This document shows, piece by piece, positions 1,206 to 19,341 of a DNA stretch of 24,623 bases (its first letter is position 1; each line of letters begins with the position of its first letter). The stretch lies in the IMG/VR virus record IMGVR_UViG_3300044796_000398, positions 1 to 24,623 of that record. One strand, written 5' to 3'. The stretch comes from a virus. The notes beneath the pieces are model-generated. The model was given only the letters and a program-made list of their open reading frames with translations, was not told the origin of the DNA and made no database searches. Both the position numbers and the translations under genes were made by a program.

Positions 1206-1206
1206 A

Positions 1207-1948: not shown

Positions 1949-1984
1949 GTATTTACTTCCAGATATCATATATTTATGGGTTAG

Positions 1985-3181: not shown

Positions 3182-3231
3182 ATTTATTCCTTATAATGTT
3201 GCAACTAAATATCATAATATTCAGAGATTTA

Positions 3232-3627
3232 TTAAACATTTATATTTAATATGAACTCCATATCAAACTCTTTCAGCATTGATGATATACTTGCCGTCAT
3301 CTGTCTTTTTTGCATATCATTTTCATATTTTGCCGCGCGAATGAAACTGTCAGGAACATATCCTTTTGCTTTTTTGCCGGCCGTCGATGATGTAATTGTT
3401 ATATTATATGACAAATCGTCATTTGATTCAATTGCCAATTTGTAATCCGGTGTTGCCGCCGGCGTCATACCGTAATATTTTCCGCCATTTAATTGATACA
3501 TAGCAAGCATATATTCTTGAATTGCTTTGTCAATAGATTCAACGCTTGCTTTCTTTTTACATTTTTTCTTATCCCGCTCGGCAACGCGAGATTTAATAGC
3601 CTCTTCGTATAGCCCGGCAAGTTTCAT
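3232..3627 (-). CDS. Hypothetical protein, small
   Basis: A 131-aa protein starting MKLAGLYEEAI. A GTG six bases earlier (3633) could also start it, but the AAGGTG ribosome site overlaps that GTG and is well placed for ATG 3627. The N-terminal half is charged and probably helical (AERDKKKCKKK, IDKAIQEYMLAMYQLNGGKYYG). The rest is mixed (NITITSSTAGKKAKGY). There is no signal peptide or membrane segment. I do not recognise the family. It starts within 10 bases of the stop of the tail-spike-like gene, so it is probably co-translated with it. A chaperone or connector role is possible but not shown. Confidence 0.6.
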   Translation of the reverse strand: MKLAGLYEEAIKSRVAERDKKKCKKKASVESIDKAIQEYMLAMYQLNGGKYYGMTPAATPDYKLAIESNDDLSYNITITSSTAGKKAKGYVPDSFIRAAKYENDMQKRQMTASISSMLKEFDMEFILNINV

Positions 3628-3634
3628 TGACACC

Positions 3635-5776: not shown

Positions 5777-5789
5777 TATTTTCTCTTTT

Positions 5790-8700
5790 TTAGACGGTCA
5801 TTTCGCATACATACCAAGATCCGTTTGCGGAAGCAGAGATTCCCGTAATAATCCCTGTATAACCAAATGGAACTTCTAATAAACCGTTGGTAATAGGTAC
5901 GGCTATATTGTAACTATTCAAAGCGGCACCGGATCCGAATTTAACATAAAGTATTTGTGTAGAGCTGTTGCTGATGGTAGCGCCCAATCTATTAGCATTT
6001 GCTGCTAATACTGTAACAACTGTAGCAGAAGATGCTACAACAGTTGTAGTTCCTGTAGAGGCTTTTGGTGCAGCAGATGCTGGACTTAAAGCTACGACCA
6101 GAGCAATATCAGCAGCCGCAGCTATTGTGTTTGTAGGTTTAACGCTAGCAGGTCCATTTGTACCGTCTGTTAAGCGCGCATACCATCCATTTGCGGCAGT
6201 ATTAGATGTACCTTGAGCGACTGTAGCGTTAAGATTTGCAGCTGTCGCTTGGGTGACGGTGAAATTACCTGTGCCGGCATTAGCTGTTACTGTTCCAGAA
6301 ACGGTAAACGTTCCTGTTCCAGCGTTAGCTGTTACAGTTCCTGATACCGGCTGTGTAACGTTAGAGCCATCAACTCTAAGTAAAGCGCCTGTTGTTAAAG
6401 ATAGCGGATATAAATCTCCAGATGTTAATCCGGATTGTAAAGATTGAACTTCGCCGCCAACAAATGTAGCTGACGCTGGAACAGCAGTCGCTGTTGTAGA
6501 TACGGAAGGATTTGTTGCAGAAATAGTTCCTGTAATAGGCACAGGAGTTCCGCCGGCATTACCTTGAATAGTAACAAGTCCTGACGATGCACCAGAACCA
6601 GCAGCAGTATTTCCAACTATCGTAGCGTTAAGATTTGCTGCGGTTGCTTGCGCAACGGTAAAATTACCAGTACCAGCGTTTGCAGTAACGGTGCCGCTAA
6701 CAGGCTGCGTTGTTGTTCCTGTCGGATCTGTGCGAACAGGATGAGAAGACGTTCCAAGAATATTTGTACCATCTGTAATTTCTACTGGCCATGCCGCTGC
6801 AAGCGCAGCAGCCGTACCTTGTGTTGCCGTTACAGTCCCAGAAACATTTGCATTAAGATTGGAAGCCGTAGCTTGAACAACTGTAAAATTGCCCGTTCCT
6901 GCATTTGCTGTAACCGTACCGGAAACTGGCTGTGTTGTTGCAGAAGCATCAGTTCTAACGGCTCCTGCTGTTGTCAGGCTGATTGGAGATGTTTGCGCCG
7001 TTGTATACGAAGGAGAACCTGTCGTAACAGCTCCTTGAATAAGAGGTCCTTTTTCTCCTGACGTCGTGCTTCCTTGTGAAACAAGAATACCGTTAACAGA
7101 TGTATCAAGAGCAAGACCGTTAGTTGTTCCTATATTAGAAGTTACTGTTCCAATAACCGTAGCATTAAGATTTGCAGCTGTTGCCTGCGCTACGGTAAAT
7201 GAGCCAGTTCCAGCATTTGCAGTAACTGTACCGCTAACAGGCTGCGTTGTTGCCCCTGTAGGGTCAACTCGTACAGGATGAGCAGATGTTCCTATAACGT
7301 TTGTTCCGTCATACATCTCAAACTTAGCTGTTCCTCCGGTCAAAGTCGCATCTAATGCTAATCCGTTTGTTGTACCAATATTAGCCGTTACAGTTCCAGA
7401 TACAGGTTGCGTTGCATTTGAGCCATCAACGCGAAGAAGACCTGTCGTGCTCATATTGAGCGGATACATATCTCCGTTTGTCAATCCAGATTCCGCCAAG
7501 GTTGTAACTAAAGCTCCGACATATGTAGCATCTGCTGGTGGTGCTGATGCGGTTACTCCAACTGAAGCGTTATTAAAACTACCAGTACCAGCATTAGCAG
7601 TTACAGTACCTGAAACGGTAAATGTTCCAGTCCCAGCATTAGCAGTTATAGTCCCTGATACTGGCTGTGTCGTAATTCCTGTCGGATCTGTTCTAACAGG
7701 ATGAGAGCTTGTTCCTATAACGTTTGATCCGTCATACATCTCAAACTTGGCAGTTCCTCCTGTCAAAGTCGCATCTAATGCTAATCCGTTAGTTGTGCCT
7801 ATATTTGATGTAACAGTACCAGTAACTGTTGCATTTAAGTTTGCAGCCGTTGCCTGAGCAACGGTAAAACTGCCAGTTCCGGCATTTGCAGTAACTGTTC
7901 CAGAGACAGGCTGTGTAACGTTAGATCCATCAGTTCTAAGTAGTCCTGCTGTTGTCATAGACAACGGATACATATCGCCTGTGGTTAGACCAGATTCAAC
8001 AGCCGTTGTCACAAGACCACCGACATATGTAGCATCTGCTGGTGGTGCTGATGCGGTTACTCCAACTGAAGCGTTATTAAAACTACCAGTACCAGCATTA
8101 GCAGTTACAGTACCTGAAACGGTAAATGTTCCAGTCCCAGCATTAGCCGTAACTGTTCCTGATACCGGTTGTGTAACATTAGATCCGTCAACTCGAAGCA
8201 AAGCTCCTGTAGTTAAAGATAGCGGATATAAATCACCAGAAGTTAAGCCAGATTGTAAAGATTGAACTTCGCCACCAACAAATGTGGCCGAACCAGGAAC
8301 AGCAGCAGCAGTTACTGATATGGAAGGATTTGTTGCAGAAATAGAGCCTGTAATTGGAATTGGCGTACCACTAGCATTTCCTTGAATTGTTACAAGTCCA
8401 GTTGAAGCGCCAGAGCCAGCCGCAGTTGTTCCAATAATTGTAGCATTTAAGCTAGAAGCTGTTGCTTGAGCGACTGTAAAACTACCAGTACCAGCGTTTG
8501 CAGTAACTGTTCCAGAGACAGGCTGTGTTGTCGCAGAACTATCTGTTCTAACGGCACCGGCTGTTGTAAGGCTTAATGGTGATGTTTGAGCATTGACATA
8601 AGATGGCGAAGAAGTTGTAACAGCACCTTGGATTAACGGCCCTTTTTCACCTGATGTAGAGCTGCCCTGAGAAACAAGAATACCATTTACAGATGTGTCT

Positions 8701-10985
8701 AGCGCTAAACCATTTGTTGTACCTATATTTGACGTTACAGTACCAGTAACTGTTGCATTTAAGTTAGCAGCGGTCGCTTGTGCAACTGTAAAGCTGCCAG
8801 TTCCGGCATTAGCTGTTACAGTTCCTGATACTGGTTGAGTTACAGCACTACCATCAATTTTAAGTGCATTGCTAGCAGTTACTGTTGCAGCATTTCCGCC
8901 TTGATCTATTGTAACCAACCAAGGAGAAGTATTTGGAGTATTTCCTGGCTGTACAGTCCAAGTTCCTCCTTGATTTGCCGTTACTGTACCAGATACAGGT
9001 TGCGTCGCATTAGAGCCGTCAACTCTTAAAAGACCTGTTGTGCTCATATTGAGCGGATACATATCTCCAGTTGTTAAACCGGACTCTGGAGATGTTGTAA
9101 CTAAAGCTCCGGCATATGTAGCATCAGCAGGTGGAGCTGATGCTGTAGCTCCAATAGAAGCATTAGTAAAATTACCTGTGCCAGCATTAGCCGTTACAGT
9201 GCCTGAAACGGTAAACGTTCCTGTTCCAGCGTTAGCTGTTACAGTTCCTGATATAGGCTGCGTTGTTGCCCCTGTAGGGTCAACTCGTACAGGATGAGCA
9301 GATGTTCCTATAATGTTTGTTCCGTCATACATCTCAAACTTAGCTGTTCCTCCTGTCAAAGTCGCATCTAATGCTAATCCATTCGTTGTACCAATATTAG
9401 ATGTAACGGTGCCCGTAACAGTTGCATTTAAGTTTGCAGCCGTTGCTTGAACAACGGTAAAGTTACCTGTACCAGCGTTTGCAGTAACTGTTCCAGAGAC
9501 GGGCTGTGTTGTTGCCGAAGCGTCTGTTCTAACAGCACCAGCAGTTGTAAGACTTAATGGGGACGTTTGAGCATTGACATAAGATGGCGAAGAAGTTGTA
9601 ACAGCACCCTGAATAAGCGGACCTTTTTCACCAGACGTGGAGCTACCCTGAGAAACGAGAATGCCGTTGACAGATGTATCTAATGCTAGACCGTTTGTTG
9701 TACCAATATTTGACGTAACAGTTCCAGAAACAGCAAATATTCCTGTTCCAGCGTTAGCCGTTACTGTACCTGATATTGGTTGTGTCGTTGTTCCTACTGG
9801 ATCGACTCGAACTGGATGAGAGCTTGTTCCTATAACATTCGAACCGTCATACATTTCGAACTTGGCCGTACCGCCAGTTAGCGTAGCGTCAAGAGCCAAT
9901 CCATTTGTTGTACCAATATTTGACGTAACAGTTCCGGAAACATTAGCATTAAGATTTGATGCGGTAGATTGAACAACTGTAAAGTTACCAGTACCAGCAT
10001 TAGACGTAACTGTTCCTGATACCGGTTGTGTAACGTTAGATCCGTCAGTTCTAAGCAGCCCGGCTGTCGTCATAGACAACGGATACATATCGCCTGTGGT
10101 TAAACCAGATTCAACAGCCGTCGTCACAAGGCCACCAACATACGTAGCATCAGCTGGTGGTGCTGATGCTGTTACTCCAACGGAATCGTTATTAAAGCTG
10201 CCTGTGCCGGCATTAGCTGTTACTGTTCCAGATACCGGCTGTGTAACTGCACTTCCATCTACTTTTAACGCATTAGATGCCGTAACTATGGCGGCATTTC
10301 CGCCTTGCTCTACAGTCATTAGCCAAGGTGTTGTATTTGGCGTATTACCAGGTTGAACGGTCCAGGTTCCTCCTTGATCTGCTGTTACTGTTCCTGAAAC
10401 TGGTTGCGTTGTAATACCTGTTGTATCTGTTCTAACAGGATGCGAAGATGTTCCAAGAATATTTGTACCATCTGTCACTTCAACAGACCACGCATTTGCT
10501 AGCGTATTTGGAGTTCCTTGATTTACTGCGACCGTGCCTGTTACGGTTTGTGTTCCAGCTGTTTGCTGTGCTAATGTTAGCACAACAGATACAATCATAG
10601 ATCCAATAATTGTAAAAGAAGATACTCTCGCTCTAACTGCATAATATCCGCCAACGCTTGCGGTCCATTGCCCGTCGCTAGATGTAGATGATTGATTTAT
10701 TACACTGCCTACTGGCGTGCATTCTAGTGCAAACCACGTTGTATTATCAATTGTTGCTTCAAATGATAACGTAATTGTTCCAGCTGTGCTTCCTACATTA
10801 AAACCAACCGTTGCTTGTCCGCCTAATGTAATAGTAACGCTATCATTTAGGTAATTAAGAACATTGGACAAAGAGCTTACGTCCATAGGATTGCCGTTTA
10901 CATCGTATAACGTCATCCTGCCGGCATTAGAACCAGGATCTATCGTCCAAGTTGTTGTAGAAGAACCGCTTTGTATAATTGCCAT
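5790..10985 (-). CDS. Giant repeat-built phage fibre protein
   Basis: A 1731-aa, Thr/Ser/Gly/Ala/Val-rich protein starting MAIIQSGSSTTTWTIDPGSN. The N-terminal ~140 residues form a non-repetitive domain (VGFNVGSTAGTITLSFEATI). The rest is a mosaic of short beta-repeats: TQPVSGTVTANAGTGTF appears many times. Interspersed are larger blocks, including ASAPPADATYVGGLVTTAVE, FEMYDGTNVIGTSAHPVRVD, GILVSQGSSTSGEKGPLIQG, and a GSGASTGLVTIQGN block. The last ~120 residues (ANRLGATISNSSTQILYVKF to GSWYVCEMTV) form a separate domain that is a good candidate for the tip. There are no cysteine-rich, membrane or catalytic motifs. It is probably an extended fibre of the adsorption apparatus. Recombination between repeats could change its length. 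Confidence 0.8.
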   Translation of the reverse strand: MAIIQSGSSTTTWTIDPGSNAGRMTLYDVNGNPMDVSSLSNVLNYLNDSVTITLGGQATVGFNVGSTAGTITLSFEATIDNTTWFALECTPVGSVINQSSTSSDGQWTASVGGYYAVRARVSSFTIIGSMIVSVVLTLAQQTAGTQTVTGTVAVNQGTPNTLANAWSVEVTDGTNILGTSSHPVRTDTTGITTQPVSGTVTADQGGTWTVQPGNTPNTTPWLMTVEQGGNAAIVTASNALKVDGSAVTQPVSGTVTANAGTGSFNNDSVGVTASAPPADATYVGGLVTTAVESGLTTGDMYPLSMTTAGLLRTDGSNVTQPVSGTVTSNAGTGNFTVVQSTASNLNANVSGTVTSNIGTTNGLALDATLTGGTAKFEMYDGSNVIGTSSHPVRVDPVGTTTQPISGTVTANAGTGIFAVSGTVTSNIGTTNGLALDTSVNGILVSQGSSTSGEKGPLIQGAVTTSSPSYVNAQTSPLSLTTAGAVRTDASATTQPVSGTVTANAGTGNFTVVQATAANLNATVTGTVTSNIGTTNGLALDATLTGGTAKFEMYDGTNIIGTSAHPVRVDPTGATTQPISGTVTANAGTGTFTVSGTVTANAGTGNFTNASIGATASAPPADATYAGALVTTSPESGLTTGDMYPLNMSTTGLLRVDGSNATQPVSGTVTANQGGTWTVQPGNTPNTSPWLVTIDQGGNAATVTASNALKIDGSAVTQPVSGTVTANAGTGSFTVAQATAANLNATVTGTVTSNIGTTNGLALDTSVNGILVSQGSSTSGEKGPLIQGAVTTSSPSYVNAQTSPLSLTTAGAVRTDSSATTQPVSGTVTANAGTGSFTVAQATASSLNATIIGTTAAGSGASTGLVTIQGNASGTPIPITGSISATNPSISVTAAAVPGSATFVGGEVQSLQSGLTSGDLYPLSLTTGALLRVDGSNVTQPVSGTVTANAGTGTFTVSGTVTANAGTGSFNNASVGVTASAPPADATYVGGLVTTAVESGLTTGDMYPLSMTTAGLLRTDGSNVTQPVSGTVTANAGTGSFTVAQATAANLNATVTGTVTSNIGTTNGLALDATLTGGTAKFEMYDGSNVIGTSSHPVRTDPTGITTQPVSGTITANAGTGTFTVSGTVTANAGTGSFNNASVGVTASAPPADATYVGALVTTLAESGLTNGDMYPLNMSTTGLLRVDGSNATQPVSGTVTANIGTTNGLALDATLTGGTAKFEMYDGTNVIGTSAHPVRVDPTGATTQPVSGTVTANAGTGSFTVAQATAANLNATVIGTVTSNIGTTNGLALDTSVNGILVSQGSTTSGEKGPLIQGAVTTGSPSYTTAQTSPISLTTAGAVRTDASATTQPVSGTVTANAGTGNFTVVQATASNLNANVSGTVTATQGTAAALAAAWPVEITDGTNILGTSSHPVRTDPTGTTTQPVSGTVTANAGTGNFTVAQATAANLNATIVGNTAAGSGASSGLVTIQGNAGGTPVPITGTISATNPSVSTTATAVPASATFVGGEVQSLQSGLTSGDLYPLSLTTGALLRVDGSNVTQPVSGTVTANAGTGTFTVSGTVTANAGTGNFTVTQATAANLNATVAQGTSNTAANGWYARLTDGTNGPASVKPTNTIAAAADIALVVALSPASAAPKASTGTTTVVASSATVVTVLAANANRLGATISNSSTQILYVKFGSGAALNSYNIAVPITNGLLEVPFGYTGIITGISASANGSWYVCEMTV
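7516..8147 (-). repeat. Exact 128-bp direct repeat inside the giant fibre gene (two copies, 504 bp apart)
   Basis: Positions 7516-7643 and 8020-8147 are base-for-base identical. They are offset by 504 bp, exactly 168 codons. Most other repeats in this gene match in protein but differ at synonymous positions, so this pair was duplicated or converted recently. Deletion or duplication between the copies would keep the frame. Confidence 0.85.
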
Positions 10986-11002
10986 ATATGTATATCAATC
11001 TA

Positions 11003-11323
11003 TTAGCCTATTATATAGTTTATTGTATAAACCCCAGAAACTGGGCCTTCCAAAGCATTCGCGTAAAGAGTAAACTGTCCACTACCAGGGTAAGCCGAAA
11101 AAAGAATTGGATCCATTTCATTTTCATCAGCTTGCCTTCCAGGCGCAGCAACGCCCGATTGAACAATCATTAAATTAGATGTCAATGTTACGTTCGAGTC
11201 AATAATAGTAAAAACTTTTGTTCTTGTTGCCGATGAGCCAAAATCTATTTCTACTGCTGTGATTGTAATTGTTCCGCCGCCTTTTGTTATTGGTTTTATT
11301 TGATCTTGATTTATTCTGCTCAC
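11003..11323 (-). CDS. Small hypothetical virion-associated protein
   Basis: A 106-aa protein starting at GTG 11323 (S-R-I-N-Q-D-Q-I-K-P follows). AAGGA lies seven bases upstream, and GTGA overlaps the stop of the preceding frame (11320-11322), which suggests translational coupling. The sequence is beta-rich (GGTITITAVEIDFGS, VFTIIDSNVTLTSNLMIVQS) and ends with a YALEGPV/YTINYIIG-like beta segment. It resembles small baseplate or fibre-connector proteins in general character only; I do not recognise a family. The next gene downstream is the giant fibre, so a structural partner role is a guess. Confidence 0.6.
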   Translation of the reverse strand: MSRINQDQIKPITKGGGTITITAVEIDFGSSATRTKVFTIIDSNVTLTSNLMIVQSGVAAPGRQADENEMDPILFSAYPGSGQFTLYANALEGPVSGVYTINYIIG

Positions 11324-11505
11324 GTATTCCTTAAATGATAATTGGCGGTTATTACGTCAGAACAGAACGGAGGAGCGCTAAATATTACTGTATTATATCC
11401 GGTGCCCGGCCCACTGCCTTCAGCTATGAAATAATCATCAGAGATGACTTGTTTATAACGCCGTTTCTGTAAACAATTATTTTGTACGGATAAGATTGAA
11501 TCCAA
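11320..11505 (-). pseudogene. C-terminal part of a frameshifted beta-sandwich structural protein
   Basis: The useful part of this frame is roughly 11320-11466: SDDYFIAEGSGPGTGYNTVI, then FSAPPFCSDVITANYHLRNT. It has the motif order of a known phage module (D-Y-x-x-x-G-x-G-P-G-T-G-Y-x-x-V-x-F, A-P, D-V-I-T-A-x-Y). The first half of that module (PYKIIVYRNGV) sits in the overlapping upstream gene in a frame one base away. The segment 11467-11505 in this frame is only a shadow of that gene. Its stop overlaps the GTG start of the 106-aa gene. It is therefore best read as the tail of the 11424-11906 protein after a -1 shift, by mutation, sequence error or recoding. Confidence 0.6.
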
Positions 11506-11906
11506 ACGCCAGATGGAATTGTAAATATTACATTTACACCATCTACATCGCCAACTAATAAAATATCTAATTGTTCTGTTACATCCATTTGTTGGTATGA
11601 AACTTGTAATCCACCAGGAACACCATTAGATTCAAGAAACTTGAATTGATCATTGCTAAATTGAAGAAGATTTATATTGCTTTCAACAACGGCTAATTCA
11701 TTATATTGAAGCTTAATATATAAATCTCCTTTAAGAAGCGAATATCTTATGTCTGCTTCGCTGACACCAGGAACTGAAAGTATATCTAACGTTTGATTGT
11801 TATATACAGGCCACCCAAAAATCTTTACAGTTTTGTTATATGGTATTATATTTTTAACAACAAACTTAGTGTCCATCACCCTATTGTAATAATATAATTC
11901 CGTCAT
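11424..11906 (-). CDS. Putative virion structural protein, frameshifted near its C-terminus
   Basis: A 160-aa frame starting MTELYYYNRVMDTKFVVKN two bases after the stop of the 262-aa gene. It has an N-terminal beta-rich region (FGWPVYNNQTLDILSVPGV) and a middle region (LLKGDLYIKLQYNELAVVES). It then starts a module DGVNVIFTIPSGVWIQSYPY followed by KIIVYRNGV. That module normally continues with a D-Y-...-G-P-G-T-G-Y-N-T-V-x-F stretch, which is present in the other frame at 11320-11466. In this frame the ending is the unrelated INKSSLMIIS. With a -1 shift around 11445-11470 the product would be about 195 aa. No classical slippery heptamer is obvious (local codons GTT ATA AAC AAG). Confidence 0.65.
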   Translation of the reverse strand: MTELYYYNRVMDTKFVVKNIIPYNKTVKIFGWPVYNNQTLDILSVPGVSEADIRYSLLKGDLYIKLQYNELAVVESNINLLQFSNDQFKFLESNGVPGGLQVSYQQMDVTEQLDILLVGDVDGVNVIFTIPSGVWIQSYPYKIIVYRNGVINKSSLMIIS

Positions 11907-11908
11907 AA

Positions 11909-12697
11909 TTATTCATCGACTTTGTCACAAATCGTAATTGTAATCGTACGCGTTGTTTGGAGTTCGCCTTCTCTTCTAAAATTATTATTGCCAAAAATAG
12001 CATTGACAATATTCTGCTGCATATTAGCGCCGTTACTGTCTTTTACAATTGTCTGCGGAGAAGCGTCGTCTTTTGTCATATGCAAATATGCGCCACGTTT
12101 TAAGAGGTTTTCATCTTTTTTAAGAATTACATCCTTAAAATCAGATTCTTTGATTCGCGCCAATTCTTCTATCGACAGCCGATATCTTGCAAACATCAAT
12201 TGCTCCAAATATGCAATTTGCGGGCGAAAAATATCCAAATCCGCCTCTTTTATCCGCAATATTCTATATAACGAATCATATAGCGTTCGTGCATAGCTCG
12301 CGTGCCATTCGGGCATTGTTCCAAAGCTTTCTTTTAATTGCTCCAAAGGAGCGCGCATTCTTGCAAATATATCAATTTTTTCCTGCATTTCGTCATCGAT
12401 GAATTGATCCGAACGATTCCAATATTGAAGATTTTCGCGAGGATTTCGCTCGGTTTCGGAATTGATGCGCCGGGTATCAAAAGCAATCTTTCGTATTTGA
12501 TTTGCTGATTTTTCGCTTGAAAGTTCTTGCATGGCTGAACGTCTTGCACTGCGAATTACTGACGGAGTTTCTGTTGGAACGGAAATATTATATGTCAATT
12601 TATCAGGAACGGTTGCATTTCCGGCATTATATGCTTGAAAATCCTTGGCCAGATTATCGATTAGCCCAATATAATTTGCGATACTTCGTGTATTCAT
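11909..12697 (-). CDS. Hypothetical protein, helical, probably virion-associated
   Basis: A 262-aa protein starting MNTRSIANYIGLIDNLAKDF. It is charged and mainly helical in pattern (MQEKIDIFARMRAPLEQLKE, RPQIAYLEQLMFARYRLSIE), with a short C-terminal beta-looking end (QTTRTITITICDKVDE). It has no membrane segment, signal peptide or catalytic motif. I see no clear ribosome site before ATG 12697, and the 71-base gap to the GNAT-like gene contains no clear promoter or terminator. It is the first gene of the adsorption block after the accessory cassette and is followed within two bases by the next structural gene. I do not recognise the family. Confidence 0.6.
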   Translation of the reverse strand: MNTRSIANYIGLIDNLAKDFQAYNAGNATVPDKLTYNISVPTETPSVIRSARRSAMQELSSEKSANQIRKIAFDTRRINSETERNPRENLQYWNRSDQFIDDEMQEKIDIFARMRAPLEQLKESFGTMPEWHASYARTLYDSLYRILRIKEADLDIFRPQIAYLEQLMFARYRLSIEELARIKESDFKDVILKKDENLLKRGAYLHMTKDDASPQTIVKDSNGANMQQNIVNAIFGNNNFRREGELQTTRTITITICDKVDE

Positions 12698-12768
12698 TGC
12701 AAAAATACGAAATTATTAGCTGATTTTTTAGGTCAAAACGAAAATCATTACCTATTGTCTTTTGATAA

Positions 12769-13569
12769 TTATGCCAATTTTACACTTCCATCATATGTGT
12801 CGGATTTATACGCTCCGGGGAACTTTAATTTATACGCGCATGTCCCTTTTAAGCCGCCACCAAGATTAACGGTTTTGGCACCAAGTTCATTTGCTTTTCT
12901 ATATGCTAAATCATCAATATATTCTGACAATCCAGAATATGACACGCCATCATCATTTTTAATGAGGCAGAGACTTTTACCAATTATATAGGAACAATTA
13001 AATGATTTATCTGGCGGGCTTAAAACGGCAAAACCTATTAAACGCTCTTTATCATAAAGAAAAACATTTATACAATCTTTATGAAAATTATTCTTAAAAA
13101 AGAACTTATTTTTTCCAGATCTGTCTTGAAAATATTTCATTGCAGAAGTATCTCCCCAAATAGTAAGCATCTTTAGTATATCATCAAAGTTCTTAAAATC
13201 TGATAGTATCTCAATATTCATTTTAGATATTTTATTGATGCTCCATCTTATATCACGAAAAGCTTTTCCATTATAATTTATATTTGATACAGGAATTATA
13301 ATATCTGGGTCCTTACGCGCTGATACGGAATATCCATCGCGTTCTAATATTTCTAATATCTCAACATCTTTTTTAGAAAAATAAAAAAAAGAAAACGGAA
13401 CAATAGATTTAATAAATAATAAATCATCTTCGCAAAGATTATTAGTTTTAATCAATTGTCGTTTTTTATTTATTTCCCAAGATATGAACTTATCGTTATA
13501 TGATATATTTTTCGCCTGAATGCCGAGAAAAGATCTCCAAGAATATTCGTTTATATAATTAGTAGCCAT
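12769..13569 (-). CDS. GNAT-like (DUF2156-like) acyl/aminoacyl transferase-fold protein
   Basis: A 266-aa protein starting at ATG 13569, one base after the HNH stop. Residues ~100-125 (GKAFRDIRWSINKISKMNIE) match the G-K-x-x-R-x-x-R-x-x-x-N pattern seen in DUF2156 / phosphatidylglycerol-lysyltransferase-like double-GNAT proteins. The central part has the GNAT order of strands (INVFLYDKERLIGFAVLSPP). The end has NLGGGLKGTCAYKLKFPGA, like the final G-G-x-x-G-x-x-x-F-K segment of this superfamily. Substrate is unknown: lipid, peptide, tRNA-linked amino acid or modified base are all possible. It closes a three-gene cassette with a methyltransferase-like protein, so a role in nucleic-acid modification is conceivable but unproven. 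It is AT-rich. Confidence 0.55.
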   Translation of the reverse strand: MATNYINEYSWRSFLGIQAKNISYNDKFISWEINKKRQLIKTNNLCEDDLLFIKSIVPFSFFYFSKKDVEILEILERDGYSVSARKDPDIIIPVSNINYNGKAFRDIRWSINKISKMNIEILSDFKNFDDILKMLTIWGDTSAMKYFQDRSGKNKFFFKNNFHKDCINVFLYDKERLIGFAVLSPPDKSFNCSYIIGKSLCLIKNDDGVSYSGLSEYIDDLAYRKANELGAKTVNLGGGLKGTCAYKLKFPGAYKSDTYDGSVKLA

Positions 13570-14142
13570 TTATTCATCTTTCTTAATGAAATGATTATGT
13601 AAATTGATAATCCAAGACGTAAAATCTTCAACGCTTCTGTCTCTTTTAGAGTAATTACAATACTTACAGCAAGGAACAACGTTATTTTTATTATGGGGCA
13701 AAGTATTATTTATACGATCTAATCCGCTATATATTAGCCCATCTTTATTATAATTTGCGGCTTTTTTATCATCATTAAAATAAATGTTTGATGGAATAGC
13801 GTTGCAATAAAAACAGTTTTGTGAAATTATTTTTGAGAAATCTTCAAGCGTCAAATCTCCGTCATTATACCTGCGTCTAAAAACAGACGCAATAAGAGCG
13901 TCCATTGGAGATTTATATTTAATACGAACAGAATACATATTTTTTGCACGAGCTGAACGCTGATCGTCGTTTAGGCATCCGCAAGATTTCGTGCTACCGC
14001 TTGTTAGACTATCTAATTTCACTATTTTAGTAACCCCGCAATCGCATAAACAATTCCATGCGGCTTTATTTTTCACATCTGACGCTCTCGATATTACCAA
14101 AAGCCGGCTATATTTTTTGCCTGTTACATCTTTCTTTCTCAT
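13570..14142 (-). CDS. HNH homing-type endonuclease with N-terminal zinc-binding domain
   Basis: A 190-aa protein. The N-terminal ~57 residues have the T-G-K-x-Y-S-R-L-x-V-I start and a CLCDCG...KSCGCL cysteine cluster (C31, C33, C35, C54, C56), typical of a DNA-binding domain joined to phage HNH enzymes. The C-terminal nuclease has a CFYC knuckle (C110, C113), the SGLDRINN segment (residues ~139-146, D142 as part of the metal site), and NKNNVVPCCKYC (residues ~153-162). The catalytic layout therefore appears complete. Its ATG overlaps the methyltransferase stop as ATGA, and its stop abuts the next start, so it is embedded in the cassette rather than in an intron. Free-standing homing is the likely role. 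Confidence 0.88.
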   Translation of the reverse strand: MRKKDVTGKKYSRLLVISRASDVKNKAAWNCLCDCGVTKIVKLDSLTSGSTKSCGCLNDDQRSARAKNMYSVRIKYKSPMDALIASVFRRRYNDGDLTLEDFSKIISQNCFYCNAIPSNIYFNDDKKAANYNKDGLIYSGLDRINNTLPHNKNNVVPCCKYCNYSKRDRSVEDFTSWIINLHNHFIKKDE

Positions 14143-15572
14143 ATAGTCCGTTTTCTAAATATGTGAATCGGCTCATATTTAATATTATTATTTTTATTGC
14201 CAAAAACAGTATTTTTTGCTAACTGTATTTTATATGTATCAATTAGATCTAAATCGTATTCTTTTAGAACATTGCACATATCTTCTCCTATATTAAAACC
14301 ACTGGCATCATCTGCGATATTTATTGCAAAAATACCATCATTTTTTAATAATTTTATCGTATTCTGAACGGTTTTTCTCCAATATAAATTGATAAAACCG
14401 ACATAATTTTCATTATGATATGCTTGTGTTTTATTATTTTCATATTTTTCAACATTAAAATAAGGCGGACTTGAAAAAGCTAAAGCTATTTTACCTTCAT
14501 ATTTTATATTAAAATAATTTTCAGATCCAGAGCATATAATTTCCGCATTTTTATTTAGAAATGGTATATTTTGTTTTAGAAAAGCATATATATCGTTATT
14601 ACTTTTAACGGATTTTTCCATAGGATCAACGCCAATATACGTTAAAGAATGTTTCACTGACATAGCAGCAATTAGTCTTTGTCCAAAACCAGCAGAATAA
14701 TCATATATAATATCTCCGTCTTTTGTAAATGTATCATAAACGTATTTAGCAACCATAGGGTTAAATATACTTGCTTTATATGCAAGCTTCGAGTTAGCCA
14801 AACCTTGTTTAAGCATATTGCCAGTCATATTAAAATTACCATCAAGTCTGTTTTTAATCACTTTTTTTAATAAAGTATCATCATTAAAAGTATCAAGCAT
14901 AGACGTTTTGTTGCGTCTACCACTATTTACTTCATAAAAATGCGGCGAGAAATACTTAAAACTAGGAACACCTAACTGATAAGATATTGCTAAATTATGG
15001 TCTTTTTCTATTATTGACGAATTAGTATTTTTTAAGTTTGTGAAATCTTTTATTATTTCATCGTTAGAAAGCAAAGAATACGGAAATCCGTTTTTTCTAT
15101 AAAAATTAAATAATTGATCGGCGATAGAAAGTTTATCGGCCTCGGATAATTTCACTAGATTAGTGCCCGTTAATAAAATATCATTGATTTCAGGAATATA
15201 TGTCGTTCCATATTTAGGTGTTATTTGGGTTTTAACAAAATCCTCTTTGAGGACTTTTGTTCGATCGATATTATTCTTTTTTAATATACGTATAACTGTG
15301 GAATTAGCTATTCCAAGATTAGTAGCAATTGATGTGGAAGAGCGACCGCTAATATATTCCTTCACTATATAACGAATATTAGTTTCACTAATTTTCCCAG
15401 ATTGATTTCTATCAATTCCTAATTTTGATAATATTCTTATGACAGAATTGCTATAAATGTCAAATATTATCCCTATATCTTTTGGCGACATTCCTTCGGA
15501 ATATAACTTTACAATTTTATATGTATCTTCTTTTGATATTCTTTTCATAACAGTATATGTTATGATATGCAT
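14139..15572 (-). CDS. HTH + SAM-dependent DNA methyltransferase-like protein
   Basis: A 477-aa protein. Residues ~11-55 and ~60-105 are two tandem helix-turn-helix units (GMSPKDIGIIFDIYSNSVIR, RSSTSIATNLGIANSTVIRI). The C-terminal part is a Rossmann methyltransferase: motif I is DYSAGFGQRL (291-300), an acidic strand end is YIGVDP (312-317), and the catalytic motif is SSPPY (367-371), as in amino-methyltransferases acting on N6-adenine or N4-cytosine. The region between (120-270) is unassigned. ATG 15572 has only a weak GAG ribosome site and lies inside a 9-bp inverted repeat; ATG 15548 (residue 9) is an alternative. Upstream are three direct repeats, so self-regulation by the HTH part is a reasonable inference. 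The stop overlaps the HNH start. Confidence 0.75.
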   Translation of the reverse strand: MHIITYTVMKRISKEDTYKIVKLYSEGMSPKDIGIIFDIYSNSVIRILSKLGIDRNQSGKISETNIRYIVKEYISGRSSTSIATNLGIANSTVIRILKKNNIDRTKVLKEDFVKTQITPKYGTTYIPEINDILLTGTNLVKLSEADKLSIADQLFNFYRKNGFPYSLLSNDEIIKDFTNLKNTNSSIIEKDHNLAISYQLGVPSFKYFSPHFYEVNSGRRNKTSMLDTFNDDTLLKKVIKNRLDGNFNMTGNMLKQGLANSKLAYKASIFNPMVAKYVYDTFTKDGDIIYDYSAGFGQRLIAAMSVKHSLTYIGVDPMEKSVKSNNDIYAFLKQNIPFLNKNAEIICSGSENYFNIKYEGKIALAFSSPPYFNVEKYENNKTQAYHNENYVGFINLYWRKTVQNTIKLLKNDGIFAINIADDASGFNIGEDMCNVLKEYDLDLIDTYKIQLAKNTVFGNKNNNIKYEPIHIFRKRTI

Positions 15573-15578
15573 ATACTG
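15551..15578. promoter_or_regulatory. Inverted repeat over the methyltransferase start codon
   Basis: CAGTATATG and CATATACTG are perfect 9-bp arms separated by 10 bases. The repeat covers the ATG at 15572. It could be an operator for an HTH dimer or an mRNA hairpin that hides the start. Which one it is cannot be told from sequence. Confidence 0.55.
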
Positions 15579-15609
15579 CTCGATTTTTATTTTTAATATT
15601 TAATGTTTG

Positions 15610-15672
15610 TTGCAAGCTAACCGTGAATCGGTTGCAAGTTAACCGTAAATTGTGTGCAGGCTAACCGTAATA
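15610..15672. repeat. Three 22-bp-spaced direct repeats (iteron-like operator candidate)
   Basis: Copies on the plus strand start at 15610 (TTGCAAGCTAACCGTGAAT), 15632 (TTGCAAGTTAACCGTAAAT) and 15654 (GTGCAGGCTAACCGTAATA). The spacing is exactly 22 bp, about two helical turns, so all copies face the same side. They lie between the capsid terminator and the start of the HTH-methyltransferase gene, on its upstream side. The likely role is regulator binding; a replication-type iteron function is possible but less likely with only three copies. Confidence 0.7.
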
Positions 15673-15696
15673 ATATGCATTTTACCATAAAAATAT

Positions 15697-15728
15697 AAAA
15701 GCCGGAGAGTTTGAACTCTCCGGCTTTT
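15697..15728 (-). terminator. Strong intrinsic terminator after the capsid gene (bidirectional form)
   Basis: AAAAGCCGGAGAGTT pairs perfectly with AACTCTCCGGCTTTT around a two-base centre, followed by a T-rich stretch on the minus strand. It starts 26 bases after the capsid stop codon. Since both ends carry A/T tracts it could work in both directions. Confidence 0.9.
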
Positions 15729-15753
15729 ATACCGTCAATCTATCAGAAACTAA

Positions 15754-16264
15754 TTAAAGTGTCTGATAAAGGCTTGTTTTGTTGCCCTTCGCAACGCCGC
15801 GAGGGTTAACGATACCAATGCCTATGATTTCTGAAACAACCCAGCCAAGTTTCAGCTGTTTTGGTTCATCGGCAGGTAGGACTTCAATGTCCTGACGGAC
15901 TGGCATGACTCCCACGAACTCAGGGTCAGCGCATCCATAGACCGTCCCCGGTGGCACAATCTTCGATACCATAATATCAGCGCCCCAAATGTGAGCATAA
16001 AGCCCAGTTTGTAGGATTTCGCGCTGAGACACGGGATCAATTTCACCAGCATTGTTACCTGACGCAGCCCAATTAAGGATGTCAGTGTATTCATTGATGT
16101 TCATGAAGAACTTCGTTGTCACGAGGTCCCAACGATCAATTTGAACCTTGATGTCAACAAGATCACGTTTAAGCATACCACCATCGGAGATATCTTGAAC
16201 GGTATTTTCGACACCGGCAGCTTGATCAAGAGCCGCGAAAACGTTAGCGTCTTCTTGCGCCATA
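15754..16264 (-). CDS. Major capsid protein, exon 4 (C-terminal 169 residues)
   Basis: Exon 4 begins with T16264, which completes the isoleucine codon AT|T split by intron C, and then reads ATG GCG CAA GAA (M-A-Q-E-D-A-N-V-F). Joined to exon 3 this gives KARQEIMAQEDANVF. The internal ATG at 16263 looks like a start codon but has no ribosome site; the bases upstream are intron. The segment contains LKRDLVDIKVQIDRWDLVTT, GLYAHIWGADIMVSKIVPPG and ends GNKTSLYQTL. It would form the remaining axial domain and the C-terminal strand of an HK97-like capsid protein (fold inferred from the overall pattern and position). It is followed by a strong terminator. Confidence 0.88.
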
Positions 16265-17311
16265 CATGCGCCAACAAGATTTCTCTTGTTGATTGGACTA
16301 TACCTTCGTAGAAATTGGCTTAAAAGCTCATTTCTGCGATTGCTTTGTAGTCTCTGAAGAGATTAGAAGAATCTTATACTGCATTGACGGAATAACAACA
16401 TCTCCAATTAAAGAGCTTAACTTTATACTATTTATCTTATTAAAGCTTAAATAATATGAAATTGTTTTTGTATGTTTACTTGTCAATACTTTGGATGATA
16501 TGTTAAACTTCTTTTCGATCAATTTAGATAATGCCTCATTTTCGTCTTTTGAGAACGAATGCGAGCATATCATAATATTTCGATTTTTAGAAATCGTTCC
16601 ATCATCCATTATCCAAATCGCCAAAGAATATTTTGTAAAGTTCTTTTCGATTAAATCAATATCAAGCGTTTTTTTATTATTTTTATAGAACATTTTATAT
16701 ATTTCTATAAAAACCGGATGGCAAATCGTTGAAAACGGATAAGAATGATATATTTTACCATTTTTCTTATCAATTTTTCTTGTTTGCCTTAATTCTTTTT
16801 TATCATCGTAAATCCAGTCTTTTACTTGTTCTCTTAGCCATAAAACATATTCATAATGTTTCGTGGTTTGTTCAAGCATAAGCTGTGGATACGCTGATCG
16901 CGCCCTAAGATGACCATCTCCGAGAAGAGTTCCGATTAAGAACTCTTTTTCTTTTTGGTCCAATTCTTGTTTTGGGTGCCTTTGATACGGCTCTATTGAT
17001 TTTATGCAATATTTATTTCTTAAACGATGAACCTGACCAAGCGACATATTGAACATTTTTCCGATTTCGTTATCGGATAATTTTTCAACTAAATACAATT
17101 GTTCAAGATTTTCTTTAGAAAGAAAGTTGCGTTTGGATTTTTCTATCTCCTGCTGATTGTCCATATATTTTCCTTATTTTAACTATACTTTTATATAACC
17201 TGCTCGCAGTTGAGATCAGGTATTTTTTGTATGTAAAGGAACTTTTAGGAGTTTCCAGCATAACAGCAATTTTAACGGAAACTATTTGATCAATTCAATT
17301 TTGATCGGTCA
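16265..17311 (-). ncRNA. Group I intron C (1047 nt) in the capsid gene, with LAGLIDADG gene
   Basis: 5' junction GGAAAT|TGACC pairs with the guide GUUUCC (minus strand of 17278-17283); the exon-terminal U faces G as required. P10 is short (UAU with AUA). Core elements, minus strand: P ATGCTGGAAACTC (~17248-17262), Q GACAATCAGCAGG (17149-17161), R TTCAGAGACTACAAAGC (~16342-16358), S GGTATAGTCC (16294-16303). P9 is a hairpin with a GAAA loop (CAACAAGA/TCTTGTTG). The last base, 16265, is the required G. An in-frame stop follows the 5' junction within eight codons, so unspliced mRNA gives a truncated protein. It looks like subgroup IA. The endonuclease gene fills the loop between Q and R. Confidence 0.9.
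16328..17164 (-). CDS. Intron-encoded LAGLIDADG homing endonuclease (intron C), apparently active
   Basis: A 278-aa protein with AAGGA seven bases before ATG 17164. Residues ~29-52 form an HTH-like segment (LSDNEIGKMFNMSLGQVHRL). The two LAGLIDADG motifs are FLIGTLLGDGHL (75-86, D83) and LAIWIMDDG (181-189, D188). Both catalytic acids are present, so the enzyme should be able to cut. The length fits a single-chain double-motif enzyme. Its first codons overlap the intron Q element (ATGGACAATCAGCAGG), and its last codons (SSETTKQ) encode the R element, so coding and ribozyme sequence are shared at both ends. The expected target is the intronless capsid gene at the exon 3/exon 4 junction; this is inferred from intron homing in general. 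Confidence 0.9.
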   Translation of the reverse strand: MDNQQEIEKSKRNFLSKENLEQLYLVEKLSDNEIGKMFNMSLGQVHRLRNKYCIKSIEPYQRHPKQELDQKEKEFLIGTLLGDGHLRARSAYPQLMLEQTTKHYEYVLWLREQVKDWIYDDKKELRQTRKIDKKNGKIYHSYPFSTICHPVFIEIYKMFYKNNKKTLDIDLIEKNFTKYSLAIWIMDDGTISKNRNIMICSHSFSKDENEALSKLIEKKFNISSKVLTSKHTKTISYYLSFNKINSIKLSSLIGDVVIPSMQYKILLISSETTKQSQK

Positions 17312-17513
17312 ATTTCCTGGCGTGCTTTCTGAACAGCACGGTCAATTACGTTGAATCTGCGACGTTTTACTTCCGCAATTCTTACGGTCGGGTTTGAGAA
17401 AACTTCAAACTCGGGGACAGTTACGCGATCGCCGAATACTCGGCTTTCGGGACCTGTGCCGTTGCTTGAAATTACTGTGGCCGCGACGTCGATATCTCTA
17501 TCGTAAACGGGTA
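17312..17513 (-). CDS. Major capsid protein, exon 3 (66 full codons plus two split codons)
   Basis: The exon starts TACCCGTTTACG at 17513 and ends GAAAT at 17312. It encodes PVYDRDIDVAATVISSNG, then GPESRVFGDRVTVPEFEVFS, then KRRRFNVIDRAVQKARQE, with a leucine codon split at its start and an isoleucine codon split at its end. There is no start codon or ribosome site. The first base is preceded by G17514, the terminal G of intron B. An alternative reading that keeps GTA before CCC as a codon does not give a consistent junction; the one chosen gives DPLPQGALPVYDRD. The segment would form part of the capsid P/A domains (inferred). Confidence 0.88.
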
Positions 17514-17682
17514 CACTTTTTGTTAATCTATAACTTTCATTATAGGTCAGACTATATCATCATCCGTTTTAATGGATGCTTTGCGTTTAGTCGTTGAGGA
17601 GCGAGAATTATTCTCTTTCCTGCTGATTGTTCATATTCATTAAACAGCTCTTTAATCAAATCAATATCTACTGATTTATTGA

Positions 17683-17757
17683 GTGAACTACCTCGGCCTG
17701 AAGGCCGATGCTTCCGCAGAATCGTTTAATTCTGCGCGGCTCGTTCCGAACCGCATA
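17683..17757 (-). ncRNA. Omega-RNA-like right end of a TnpB-family element
   Basis: Three hairpins in a row on the minus strand: 17754-17736 (GCGG...CCGC), 17736-17715 (CGCAGAAT/ATTCTGCG) and 17708-17693 (TCGGCC/GGCCGA). The end is GTAGTTCAC at 17691-17683. A hairpin followed by GTAGTTCAC is the usual right end of IS200/IS605 tnpB elements, where it is the scaffold of the guide (omega) RNA. The bases just after it would be the guide: TCAATAAATCAGTAGATATT, which here is intron sequence. No tnpB gene is in the window. Whether it is transcribed or used is unknown. Confidence 0.6.
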
Positions 17758-17762
17758 ATCAT

Positions 17763-17791
17763 ATTATAGCATGCCGCCGGAAGAAGCGCAA
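17763..17791 (-). promoter_or_regulatory. Sigma-70 promoter inside the miniature element
   Basis: Minus strand: -35 TTGCGC (17786-17791), 17-base spacer, perfect -10 TATAAT (17763-17768). Transcription would start about 17756, directly in front of the omega-RNA-like hairpins. It presumably once drove tnpB and its guide RNA. Confidence 0.7.
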
Positions 17792-17958
17792 GCATTTTTA
17801 TGAAAAAGTTTGAGACTGCGGCAATTCATCCCCGTCCTAAAGGACGGGGTTTTCTTGCAGAGAGCAGATAAAGCATTTAACGACATAACTGAACGTTCCA
17901 GCATATAGCAAAGTTTTTCGAGGAGACTTAAATCTCCAAGGCGCTACATTTTAGTTTA

Positions 17959-17973
17959 ACGCACCCTGAGGTA
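17959..17973 (-). CDS. Major capsid protein, exon 2 (15-nt micro-exon)
   Basis: TACCTCAGGGTGCGT supplies the last two bases of a split leucine codon, then CCT CAG GGT GCG (P-Q-G-A), then the first base of the next split leucine codon. The joined peptide DPLPQGALPVYDRD keeps one frame from exon 1 to exon 3. Its 5' end follows G17974, the terminal G of intron A. Its first five bases, UACCU, pair perfectly with AGGUA of intron A (P10). Its last four bases pair with the guide of intron B. The same few bases therefore serve both introns. The exon is far too short to be found by ordinary gene prediction. Confidence 0.85.
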
Positions 17974-19061
17974 CATAGGGTGTTTGTTATTTATTAGACT
18001 TCAAAGGGAACAAGTTTATATTGAAAACACGGTAATATTTGTTTCCTTTTTAACATTATATGCGAAAGTTAGCTACCGTGCTTAACTTATATGTATAATG
18101 TATTCTTCTAATAAAGCTCGACATTTTTGTCAAGCTCCTTACGTCTCTGTAAGGATCGGACTATATCTTTATCTTATTTTCATAAGATATTTGGCATAAA
18201 GTCTCTGAGGAGCGATCAATAAACGGTTTGATGATTTTCATTAGGATTTCCGAGTTTCTTTTGTTTATGCTTAAGAAATAGCTTTTTTTGCCATTTCTTT
18301 CGTATTCACAAATCTTTGAGTTAATTCCGAAGTTTACCTTTAATATTCGTTGCAGAACCTCGTGTTCTTTTAATGAATATTTATAGGTCGAAAATCGTAT
18401 ATTATCTTTTCGAACAATTCCACAATCTGAAAACCAAACAGCTAAGCCAAAGTTTGTTAACAGGTCTATTATATCTTCTCGAATTATTTTACGATTGTTA
18501 TCATAAAATAGCTTCCAAAAAAACTTTAATTCTGTTAACTTTGCGGTTCTAAAACTGTATCCATCCTTTTCTTCAAGAAAATTATTGACATAGTTTCCAA
18601 GAATCATTTTCTGCCAAAGCAGATGATCCTTTTGTTCTTTTCCGCACTTTATCAAGAGCTCAAAAGTATCTTTTGATTGAATCAACCTTCCTTTTCCAAG
18701 AAGCGAACCGACAATGAATTGTCTTTGCTCGTTAGAAAGGGGCGTTTTATTTATTAAGCGATATTTTTTCTTTGTCGGATTCGAATCAATTTCGTATTGT
18801 TTTAGCAATTCGATAACTTCTTCGTGCGGCAATTTAATTATTTCGCTTATTTCAAACGCGGTCAATGTTTTTTCACAAAACATATATTTTAGAAACTCTT
18901 TAGTAACCATTTTGATCTTTCCTGCTGATTGTCTGCTTTATCAATTATTTTGTTATATTTGATTCGATCCGGCGCCTTGCCAAGACCATTTATTATATAA
19001 CACTTTAATTTTGCAGAGTTTCCAGCATATAGCCAAATTTTAGATCCCCTACCTTAATTCA
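17974..19061 (-). ncRNA. Group I intron A (1088 nt) in the capsid gene, with LAGLIDADG gene
   Basis: 5' exon GATCCCT pairs along its full length with guide GGGGATC (minus strand of 19043-19049), U facing G. P10 is UACCU (exon 2) with AGGUA, immediately upstream of the guide. Core, minus strand: P TATATGCTGGAAACTC (19016-19031), Q GACAATCAGCAGG (18921-18933), R CTCAGAGACTTTATGC (~18194-18210), P8 ATCTTAT-GAAA-ATAAGAT, S AAAGATATAGTCCG (18157-18170). Several P9-type hairpins follow (CCTTAC/GTAAGG; CTTGACA/TGTCGAG; CACGGTA/TACCGTG). The terminal G is 17974. Unspliced mRNA reaches a stop (TTG AAT TAA) two codons into the intron. It looks like subgroup IA. Confidence 0.92.
18161..18910 (-). CDS. 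Intron-encoded LAGLIDADG protein (intron A), both catalytic acids lost
   Basis: A 249-aa protein. Both LAGLIDADG positions are clear, but the metal-binding acids are replaced: FIVGSLLGKGRL (65-76) has K73 where the intron C enzyme has D83, and LAVWFSDCG (156-164) has C163 where that enzyme has D188. The frame is intact and the fold signature is kept (N-terminal HTH-like AFEISEIIKLPHEEVIELL). DNA cutting is therefore unlikely, while a structural or maturase role in splicing is possible. The ribosome site AGGAAAG is part of the intron Q element. The C-terminus (SSETLCQISYENKIKI) runs through R and P8, and its stop TAG lies in the S element. Confidence 0.88.
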   Translation of the reverse strand: MVTKEFLKYMFCEKTLTAFEISEIIKLPHEEVIELLKQYEIDSNPTKKKYRLINKTPLSNEQRQFIVGSLLGKGRLIQSKDTFELLIKCGKEQKDHLLWQKMILGNYVNNFLEEKDGYSFRTAKLTELKFFWKLFYDNNRKIIREDIIDLLTNFGLAVWFSDCGIVRKDNIRFSTYKYSLKEHEVLQRILKVNFGINSKICEYERNGKKSYFLSINKRNSEILMKIIKPFIDRSSETLCQISYENKIKI

Positions 19062-19341
19062 AGGGATCGACAACAAGGGCTCGACGAGCGATACCTTGGT
19101 AATCGAGATTTCTACGAATAGGATTCGCCATCGCTTGCGCAAGAGCAATTTTCCCTTCGTGTGTCATTATGGCACGAGAAATAAGCTCATCGCGTCTCTC
19201 ATCGTTTAGGCTTGGTTGCCCAGATAAAGCCATATTAGAGGGCACGTTACTCTCAAGAATTGAGGCGTATTTGCTAAGCCCTTGTACTAGTTCACGGACA
19301 GATGATGCATTCATCTCTCCTCTTGAATCAAAAAAACTCAT
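19062..19341 (-). CDS. Major capsid protein, exon 1 (start of 335-aa protein)
   Basis: ATG 19341 has AAGGA nine bases upstream. Exon 1 encodes MSFFDSRGEMNASSVRELVQ and runs through DERRDELISRAIMTHEGKIA to RRNLDYQGIARRALVVDP, then the first base of a leucine codon. The full coding sequence is join(19341-19062, 17973-17959, 17513-17312, 16264-15754) on the minus strand: 1008 nt, 335 aa plus stop, with one uninterrupted frame. The pattern around VVDPLPQGALPVYDRD, then GDRVTVPEFEVFSNPTVRI and RFNVIDRAVQKARQEI, is that of HK97-like major capsid proteins of large tailed phages. The product would self-assemble into the capsid shell. Assembly requires removal of three introns. Gene order (accessory capsid gene before, adsorption genes after) fits. 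Confidence 0.88.

What the first reader, a model, noticed from the sequence alone, without database searches (positions are those of the whole stretch)
17683..17854. TnpB-type miniature element lodged inside a self-splicing intron
Seen: left-end hairpin CCCCGTCC/GGACGGGG with ATGAATTGCC and right-end hairpins ending GTAGTTCAC, only ~170 bp apart, in the P5 region of intron B. Known: IS200/IS605 elements have such ends, and IStrons combine a group I intron with this element family. Here the arrangement differs: the element is inside the ribozyme between P and Q and has lost its genes. The intron makes the insertion harmless to the capsid, a safe site.
Basis: partly seen in the sequence, partly recalled or inferred. 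Interest (0 to 1): 0.85.

Follow-up and report, generated by a model that had tools for sequence, protein, structure and literature searches.

The report
Guide-RNA mini-transposon inside a phage intron
A 185-base, gene-less jumping element that still carries the RNA part of an RNA-guided DNA cutter sits in a loop of a self-splicing intron that interrupts the shell-protein gene of a giant phage, where it can probably hide without breaking that gene.

Summary
On the minus strand, 17867-17683 is a 185-bp gene-less element with IS200/IS605 TnpB-type ends. It starts after TTTAT, has an 8-bp left-end hairpin followed by ATGAATTGCC, and ends in GAAGC-hairpin-GTAGTTCAC. A covariance model built only from TnpB-linked right ends of other phages finds it full length (42.5 bits, E=1.5e-7). 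So the element kept the three-stem omega-RNA scaffold, fused to a tnpB-like start codon and the last tnpB codons. A related phage contig carries three complete copies of 169-175 bp with the same plan, beside a full-length copy of the element; both ends align with the window copy in register.

It is an insertion, not an intron domain. In 15 comparable L5 loops (introns A and C here, and 13 in other viral contigs) the length is 89-121 nt; in intron B it is 267 = 82 + 185. The P5 fold is predicted unchanged with or without it. The introns lie in the capsid gene of a Bacillus phage G-like huge phage. Splicing out A (19061-17974) and B (17958-17514) restores DPLPQGALPVYDRD, as in intron-less relatives.

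'Harmless safe site' is plausible but untested. New is the retained guide-RNA scaffold, whose guide would match the empty intron. It is a PATE-like element nested in an intron, not an IStron.

The parts
17683..17867 (-). whole mini-element, 185 bp, left end at 17867 and right end at 17683
   Evidence: ends align in register with the 174-bp mini-element of phage contig G044: positions 12-45 to 12-45, and 145-185 to 133-174; L5 length excess of 185 nt
17868..17872 (-). TTTAT target / presumed TAM directly left of the element
   Evidence: copies in G039 and G044 follow TTAT; TTATC to the hairpin CCCC is 17 nt there and 17 nt here
17830..17849 (-). left-end subterminal hairpin CCCCGTCC-TTTA-GGACGGGG, followed by ATGAATTGCC (17829-17820)
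   Evidence: LE matches in L083, L089 and the G039/G044 elements
17763..17791 (-). possible promoter TTGCGC-17-TATAAT (TGC before the second hexamer) just upstream of the omega-RNA scaffold
   Evidence: sequence only; below the threshold of the promoter scan, so weak
17688..17762 (-). 24-codon fusion: tnpB-like start plus C-terminal remnant MIMRFGTSRAELNDSAEASAFRPR*
   Evidence: translation; same RxGTS context as intact TnpBs; same kind of fusion in the G044 minis
17683..17755 (-). omega-RNA scaffold with three stem-loops; includes the right end GAAGC-hairpin-GTAGTTCAC
   Evidence: covariance model R1, 42.5 bits, E=1.5e-7; fold z=-5.0
17663..17682 (-). presumed guide TCAATAAATCAGTAGATATT, native intron sequence right of the element
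   Evidence: position directly after the right end; inference from known TnpB systems
17514..17958 (-). group I intron B, 445 nt, without an endonuclease gene (260 nt without the element)
   Evidence: RF00028 80 bits; exon junction restores the capsid sequence of relatives
17959..17973 (-). 15-nt micro-exon TACCTCAGGGTGCGT between introns A and B
   Evidence: codes the L-PQGAL stretch of the relatives once spliced
17974..19061 (-). group I intron A with LAGLIDADG_2 gene 18161-18910
16265..17311 (-). group I intron C with LAGLIDADG_2 gene 16328-17164 (boundaries by homology)
19062..19341 (-). capsid exon 1
   Evidence: phrog_2522 major head protein
17312..17513 (-). capsid exon 3
15754..16264 (-). 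capsid exon 4
   Evidence: phrog_2522; 52% to Bacillus phage G gp27

Best explanation
Shown by sequence: 17867-17683 (-) is an internally deleted, non-autonomous IS200/IS605 element of the TnpB type. It inserted after TTTAT into the L5 loop of a capsid-gene group I intron in a Bacillus phage G-like huge phage. It kept both ends and a tnpB-like start region, fused to the last tnpB codons, and so kept the omega-RNA scaffold. Inferred: it moves by a Y1 transposase (TnpA) supplied in trans. An RNA made from it, either from its own promoter or cut from the intron, carries a guide copied from the intron just right of the insertion. With a TnpB supplied in trans this RNA would cut copies of the same intron that lack the element (TTTAT + guide), and repair would copy the element in. 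Because the insertion lies at the tip of a peripheral helix, the intron should still splice and the capsid gene should stay intact. The confidence below is for what the element is and where it sits; for a working guide RNA it is about 0.3-0.4.
For: Right end: model R1, built from five TnpB-linked ends without the window, hits full length at 42.5 bits, E=1.5e-7; it is the best hit in 776 kb of window plus related phage DNA. The scaffold folds better than all 200 shuffles, z=-5.0. Left end: hairpin+ATGAAT is unique in the window, 0 in 60 simulations; a complete TnpA/TnpB element carries the same kind of left end. Mobile kin: G044 has complete 169, 174 and 175-bp minis at different places, each after TTAT and each with a different right flank, plus a full 1170-bp tnpB copy; both ends of the window element align with a mini in register, E=5e-8 and 1e-8. 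Insertion: L5 is 267 nt here against 89-121 nt in 15 comparable introns; 267-185=82. The P5 fold is the same with and without the element. The exon join gives ...VVDPLPQGALPVYDRD..., as in relatives. TnpB is present in 14 of 42 related records and TnpA in 6 of 46.
Against: No empty site was found. No tnpA or tnpB was seen in the 24.6-kb contig, and the rest of this phage is not held, so the trans factors are assumed. The scaffold (73 nt) is a little shorter than the shortest processed omega-RNA in one survey, 79 nt (PMC10278001), so it may not be a working guide. The promoter is not statistically supported. Splicing is untested. In the relatives' introns the native sequence at the right border also reads CACTC, leaving up to 3 bp of uncertainty at that end. 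No copy of this exact element was found elsewhere.
Confidence: 0.85

Rival explanations
1. Same element, but a dead or purely TnpA-driven passenger (a PATE): it moves or moved through its ends only, and the omega-RNA part is left over without function.
For: Gene-less PATEs with only fused termini, down to 52 bp, are described (PMC3119063). The scaffold is short. No TnpB is known in this contig.
Against: About 40 nt more than the right-end hairpin were kept, and the stems are intact. The G044 mini family, whose middle does not align with the window element, was cut at nearly the same point, at the foot of stem 1, and a third mini in G025 kept about 100 nt.
Confidence: 0.45
2. The segment is a native P5 extension of the intron that merely looks like transposon ends.
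For: It lies in P5, where introns of this family carry an extension of about 90 nt.
Against: 15 comparable introns have L5 of 89-121 nt without it; intron B without it has 82 nt and folds the same. Model R1 finds nothing in the relatives' capsid introns.
Confidence: 0.02
3. The element has been adopted as a regulator of this locus, for example its hairpins or its RNA tune splicing or transcription of the capsid gene.
For: On the plus strand the left hairpin is terminator-like; strong stems sit inside the pre-mRNA.
Against: No conservation in relatives; no sign of selection could be tested on a single copy.
Confidence: 0.05
4. It is an IStron or a degenerate one.
For: Group I intron and IS605-type sequence in one unit.
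Against: In IStrons the intron makes up the 5' part and the IS the 3' part, and the unit moves together (PMC4227781). Here the element is internal in L5, the intron continues on both sides, and the intron belongs to a family seen at capsid sites without the element.
Confidence: 0.02

Closest known systems
PATEs (palindrome-associated transposable elements) of Haloquadratum walsbyi, PMC3119063
   Same: gene-less, some derived from IS605-type elements by core deletion, subterminal palindromes, no terminal inverted repeats, moved in trans; [quoted passage not shown]
   Different: archaeal chromosomes; omega-RNA retention was not a topic (2011); not inside a self-splicing intron
TnpB mini-elements of phage contig G044 (IMGVR_UViG_3300020186_000396), found here
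   Same: size (169-175 bp against 185), plan, insertion after TTAT, RE end GTAGTTCAC, tnpB start fused to the last codons
   Different: several complete copies beside a full-length tnpB copy; whether any of them lies in an intron was not examined; internal sequence differs, so possibly an independent deletion
IStrons (CdISt1, BcISt1; PMC4227781)
   Same: combine a group I intron with IS200/IS605-type sequence; splicing can hide the insertion
   Different: there the intron is part of the mobile unit; here a mini-IS is nested in the loop of a resident phage intron
TnpB / omega-RNA homing of IS200/IS605 elements (PMC8612924, PMC10278001, PMC11870625)
   Same: scaffold at the right end, guide read from the flank, TAM at the left
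   Different: here only the RNA part is left; nuclease and transposase must come from elsewhere
LAGLIDADG homing introns A and C of the same gene
   Same: same intron family, same gene, similar L5
   Different: they carry protein homing endonucleases; intron B has none and carries a guide-RNA element instead

Membership tests
IS200/IS605 family (TnpB type), as non-autonomous derivative | subterminal hairpins at both ends, no terminal inverted repeats | tested here: met
IS200/IS605 family (TnpB type), as non-autonomous derivative | insertion 3' of a short AT-rich target that also serves as TAM | tested here: met
   TTTAT at the same 17-nt spacing as in the copies of G039 and G044
IS200/IS605 family (TnpB type), as non-autonomous derivative | no target duplication; empty site equals joined flanks | tested here: inconclusive
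   no empty allele found
IS200/IS605 family (TnpB type), autonomous member | tnpA and/or tnpB gene | tested here: not met
   only a 24-codon tnpB fusion remains; so not an autonomous IS605
PATE | too short to code, IS605-type palindromes near both ends | tested here: met
PATE | mobile, in several copies | not testable with these tools
   one copy in the contig; shown only for the related family in G044
TnpB omega-RNA | structured scaffold ending at the right end, with 3' hairpin within 10 nt of the guide | tested here: met
TnpB omega-RNA | transcribed, bound by TnpB, guides cleavage | not testable with these tools
   needs experiment
IStron | intron at 5' side fused to IS at 3' side, one mobile unit | tested here: not met
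   element internal to L5
Group I intron (RF00028) | conserved core P3-P9 | tested here: met
   80 bits, model 1-253
Group I intron (RF00028) | 5' exon ends in U, intron ends in G, in-frame exon join | tested here: met
   GCGT|...GTG|TACCC, product as in relatives
Group I intron (RF00028) | self-splicing | not testable with these tools
   needs experiment

The most novel reading that the evidence does not exclude
The intron carries a guide-RNA-only selfish element: an omega-RNA gene without its nuclease, which borrows TnpB from the same or a co-infecting phage or from the host to cut and convert element-free copies of the capsid intron. In an intron without an endonuclease gene, RNA-guided spread would stand where protein homing endonucleases stand in the two neighbouring introns.
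Probability: 0.3. Interest if true: 0.85.

Novelty: new variant of a known kind. Interest (0 to 1): 0.62.

Why it matters
Group I introns and TnpB elements are both mobile RNA-based systems; known combinations (IStrons) fuse them into one unit. Here a mini-TnpB element that kept its guide-RNA scaffold is nested in a loop of a phage intron, in a gene that also holds two introns with protein homing endonucleases. That puts RNA-guided and protein-guided homing side by side in one gene and gives a simple test of whether guide RNAs without a nuclease spread in phages. It also shows that phages carry families of such mini-elements in several copies, next to full-length TnpB copies.

Tried and rejected
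BLASTN of the element against phages and plasmids gave only short hits to the hairpin; many are probably terminators, not transposon ends. RE-only BLASTN against plasmids gave nothing useful. Exact or near-exact patterns of LE, RE and LE-gap-RE in viral contigs, and RE in genome contigs: 0; so no copy of this exact element was found. Empty-site patterns for the window and for one G044 mini: 0. Considered and dropped: that the right flank (INKSVDIDLIKELFNEYEQ) is a remnant of a LAGLIDADG gene; it is native L5 sequence as in relatives. Considered and dropped: 5' splice site after CACCCT (17976) or after CAGGGT; neither satisfies both the splice-site rules (U at -1, G at the intron end) and the reading frame, whereas GGGTGCGT| does. 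Possible guide targets elsewhere: only weak matches with 2-3 mismatches in 14.

Full report
1. The observation. On the minus strand the window holds, from 17849 to 17830, CCCCGTCC-TTTA-GGACGGGG followed at once by ATGAATTGCC, and near 17683 the end GAAGC-ATCGGCC-TTCA-GGCCGAG-GTAGTTCAC. A perfect stem of at least 8 bp directly followed by ATGAAT occurs once in the window and not at all in 60 simulated windows with the same dinucleotide make-up. The only group I intron match of the window at Rfam's gathering score spans 17968-17528 (80 bits, E=4e-19, full model), and the segment is the large insertion in its P5 loop.

2. The setting. The gene is the major capsid protein (phrog_2522) of a huge phage whose closest named relative is Bacillus phage G (52% over exon 4). 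Eighty relatives were fetched; most have the gene uninterrupted and read ...VVDPLPQGALPVYDRD... or a close variant at this place. Taking U before the 5' splice site, G at the end of the intron and the reading frame together gives exon 1 to 19062, intron A 19061-17974, a 15-nt micro-exon 17973-17959, intron B 17958-17514, exon 3 from 17513. Joining them gives exactly ...RRALVVDPLPQGALPVYDRDIDVAA.... P10 pairings fit too (UACCU/AGGUA for A, UAC/GUA for B; read by eye). Introns A and C carry LAGLIDADG_2 genes; intron B has none.

3. The ends are those of TnpB elements. The only genome contig matching a loosened left-end pattern is a complete element with divergent tnpA and tnpB (Acidimicrobiaceae MAG, L089; gene names from reading the ORFs). 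Of 42 related phage records, 14 encode TnpB. Their right ends include GAAGC-hairpin-GTAGTTCAC or close forms, and several left ends have hairpin-GATGAAT. From five TnpB-linked right ends of other phages (L137, L138, L150, L151, L146; window left out) a covariance model with two helices was built. It finds one strong site in the window: 17755-17683, full length, 42.5 bits, E=1.5e-7; the next site is the left-end hairpin at 16.7 bits. Over 776 kb of window and relatives the window site remains the best. The alignment shows stem 1 (GCGGTTCGGAACGAGCCGC, where others have AAGGCTCGGTACGAGCCTT or AGGGCTGGTACAGCCCT) and the last hairpin with the GAA...TTC closing pairs. The stretch folds at -35 kcal/mol, z=-5.0. 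In a survey of TnpB orthologs almost all omega-RNA scaffolds have such a hairpin within 10 nt of their 3' end (PMC10278001).

4. It is an internal deletion of a tnpB element. In frame, the segment reads ATG ATT ATG CGG TTC GGA ACG AGC ... AGG TAG: MIMRFGTSRAELNDSAEASAFRPR*. Intact and truncated TnpBs of the group end ...NVRRLGTSLAISGEINSP... and ...NILRLGTSLKDSN.... In phage contig G044 complete mini-elements of 169, 174 and 175 bp stand at three places, each after TTAT, each with a different right flank, beside a full 1170-bp copy with tnpB; further right ends and left ends stand alone there. In these minis the deletion runs from the tnpB start codon to stem 1. The window element has the same plan; its ends align with a G044 mini in register at both sides (12-45 to 12-45 and 145-185 to 133-174, E=5e-8 and 1e-8), while the middle does not align. 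A third gene-less mini of about 240 bp lies in G025.

5. It is an insertion. In 15 comparable introns (A and C here, 13 in other viral contigs) the loop between TGCTGGAA and AATCAGCAGG is 89-121 nt, mostly 93-95; in intron B it is 267 nt, that is 82 + 185. With the 185 bp left out the predicted P5 helix is unchanged; with it in, the element folds as a separate unit at the tip. The right flank (TCAATAAAT) matches native L5 sequence of relatives such as L024. The same relatives read CACTC just there, so up to three bases at the right border could be native.

6. How it most likely works. Shown: ends, scaffold, place, ancestry. Inferred from known biology: Y1 transposase excises and inserts IS200/IS605 elements after the TAM as single strands; TnpB with an omega-RNA cuts the empty site and repair restores the element (PMC11870625; PMC10278001). 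Here both proteins would have to come in trans; TnpA is present in 6 of 46 related records and TnpB in 14 of 42, but the rest of this phage is unknown. The guide would be TCAATAAATCAGTAGATATT, that is, the intron itself; so it could convert only element-free copies of this intron, not intron-less capsid genes. A possible promoter (TTGCGC-17-TATAAT) lies just before the scaffold, but the promoter scan did not list it and such matches are common by chance. The scaffold, 73 nt, is slightly shorter than the shortest processed one in the survey (79 nt). I therefore put the identity of the element at about 0.95, and a working guide RNA at about 0.3-0.4.

7. What is known. [quoted passage not shown] IStrons fuse an intron and an IS into one unit (PMC4227781); the conflict between their splicing and guide RNA is the subject of Zedaveinyte et al. 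2024 (seen only as a reference). From memory, not tested here: stand-alone omega-RNAs and mini-IS605 elements moved in trans have been reported in bacteria. I found no paper in the held library on such an element inside a phage group I intron; the library is incomplete. I rate it a new variant of a known kind.

Noticed in passing
17959-17973 (-): A 15-nt micro-exon (TACCTCAGGGTGCGT) separates two group I introns in the capsid gene; three introns in one gene in total.
   Followed up: yes
G044 = IMGVR_UViG_3300020186_000396, e.g. 18541-18714, 50352-50520, 89435-89609: Family of 169-175 bp TnpB mini-elements with omega-RNA scaffold in several copies in a virus contig, beside a full-length tnpB copy.
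   Followed up: partly
G025 (IMGVR_UViG_3300023213_000432) 167253 and 314396; G040 44686: R1 hits without tnpB within 1.5 kb; the two G025 places share about 1.36 kb at 88% and resemble the G040 place (66%), so a longer repeated unit of unknown content with an omega-RNA-like end.
   Followed up: partly
L016, L020, L024, L034, L038, L042, L044, L059, L060, L080, L081: Related huge phages carry group I introns at two or more sites in the same capsid gene, mostly with an L5 of 93-96 nt and a conserved hairpin; a hot spot for introns.
   Followed up: partly
1207-1689 and 1541-1969 (-): GIY-YIG endonuclease (NUMOD3) that looks split by a frameshift into two overlapping reading frames.
   Followed up: no
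5790-10985 (-): 1731-aa protein built of many repeats of the type QPVSGTVTANAGTG, probably a virion surface or fibre protein.
   Followed up: no
14139-15572 and 13570-14142 (-): Helix-turn-helix protein with a DNA-methyltransferase-like part (phrog_498) next to a possible HNH-type protein.
   Followed up: no
17830-17849 (+): Read on the plus strand the left-end hairpin is followed by TTTTCTT and is terminator-like.
   Followed up: no
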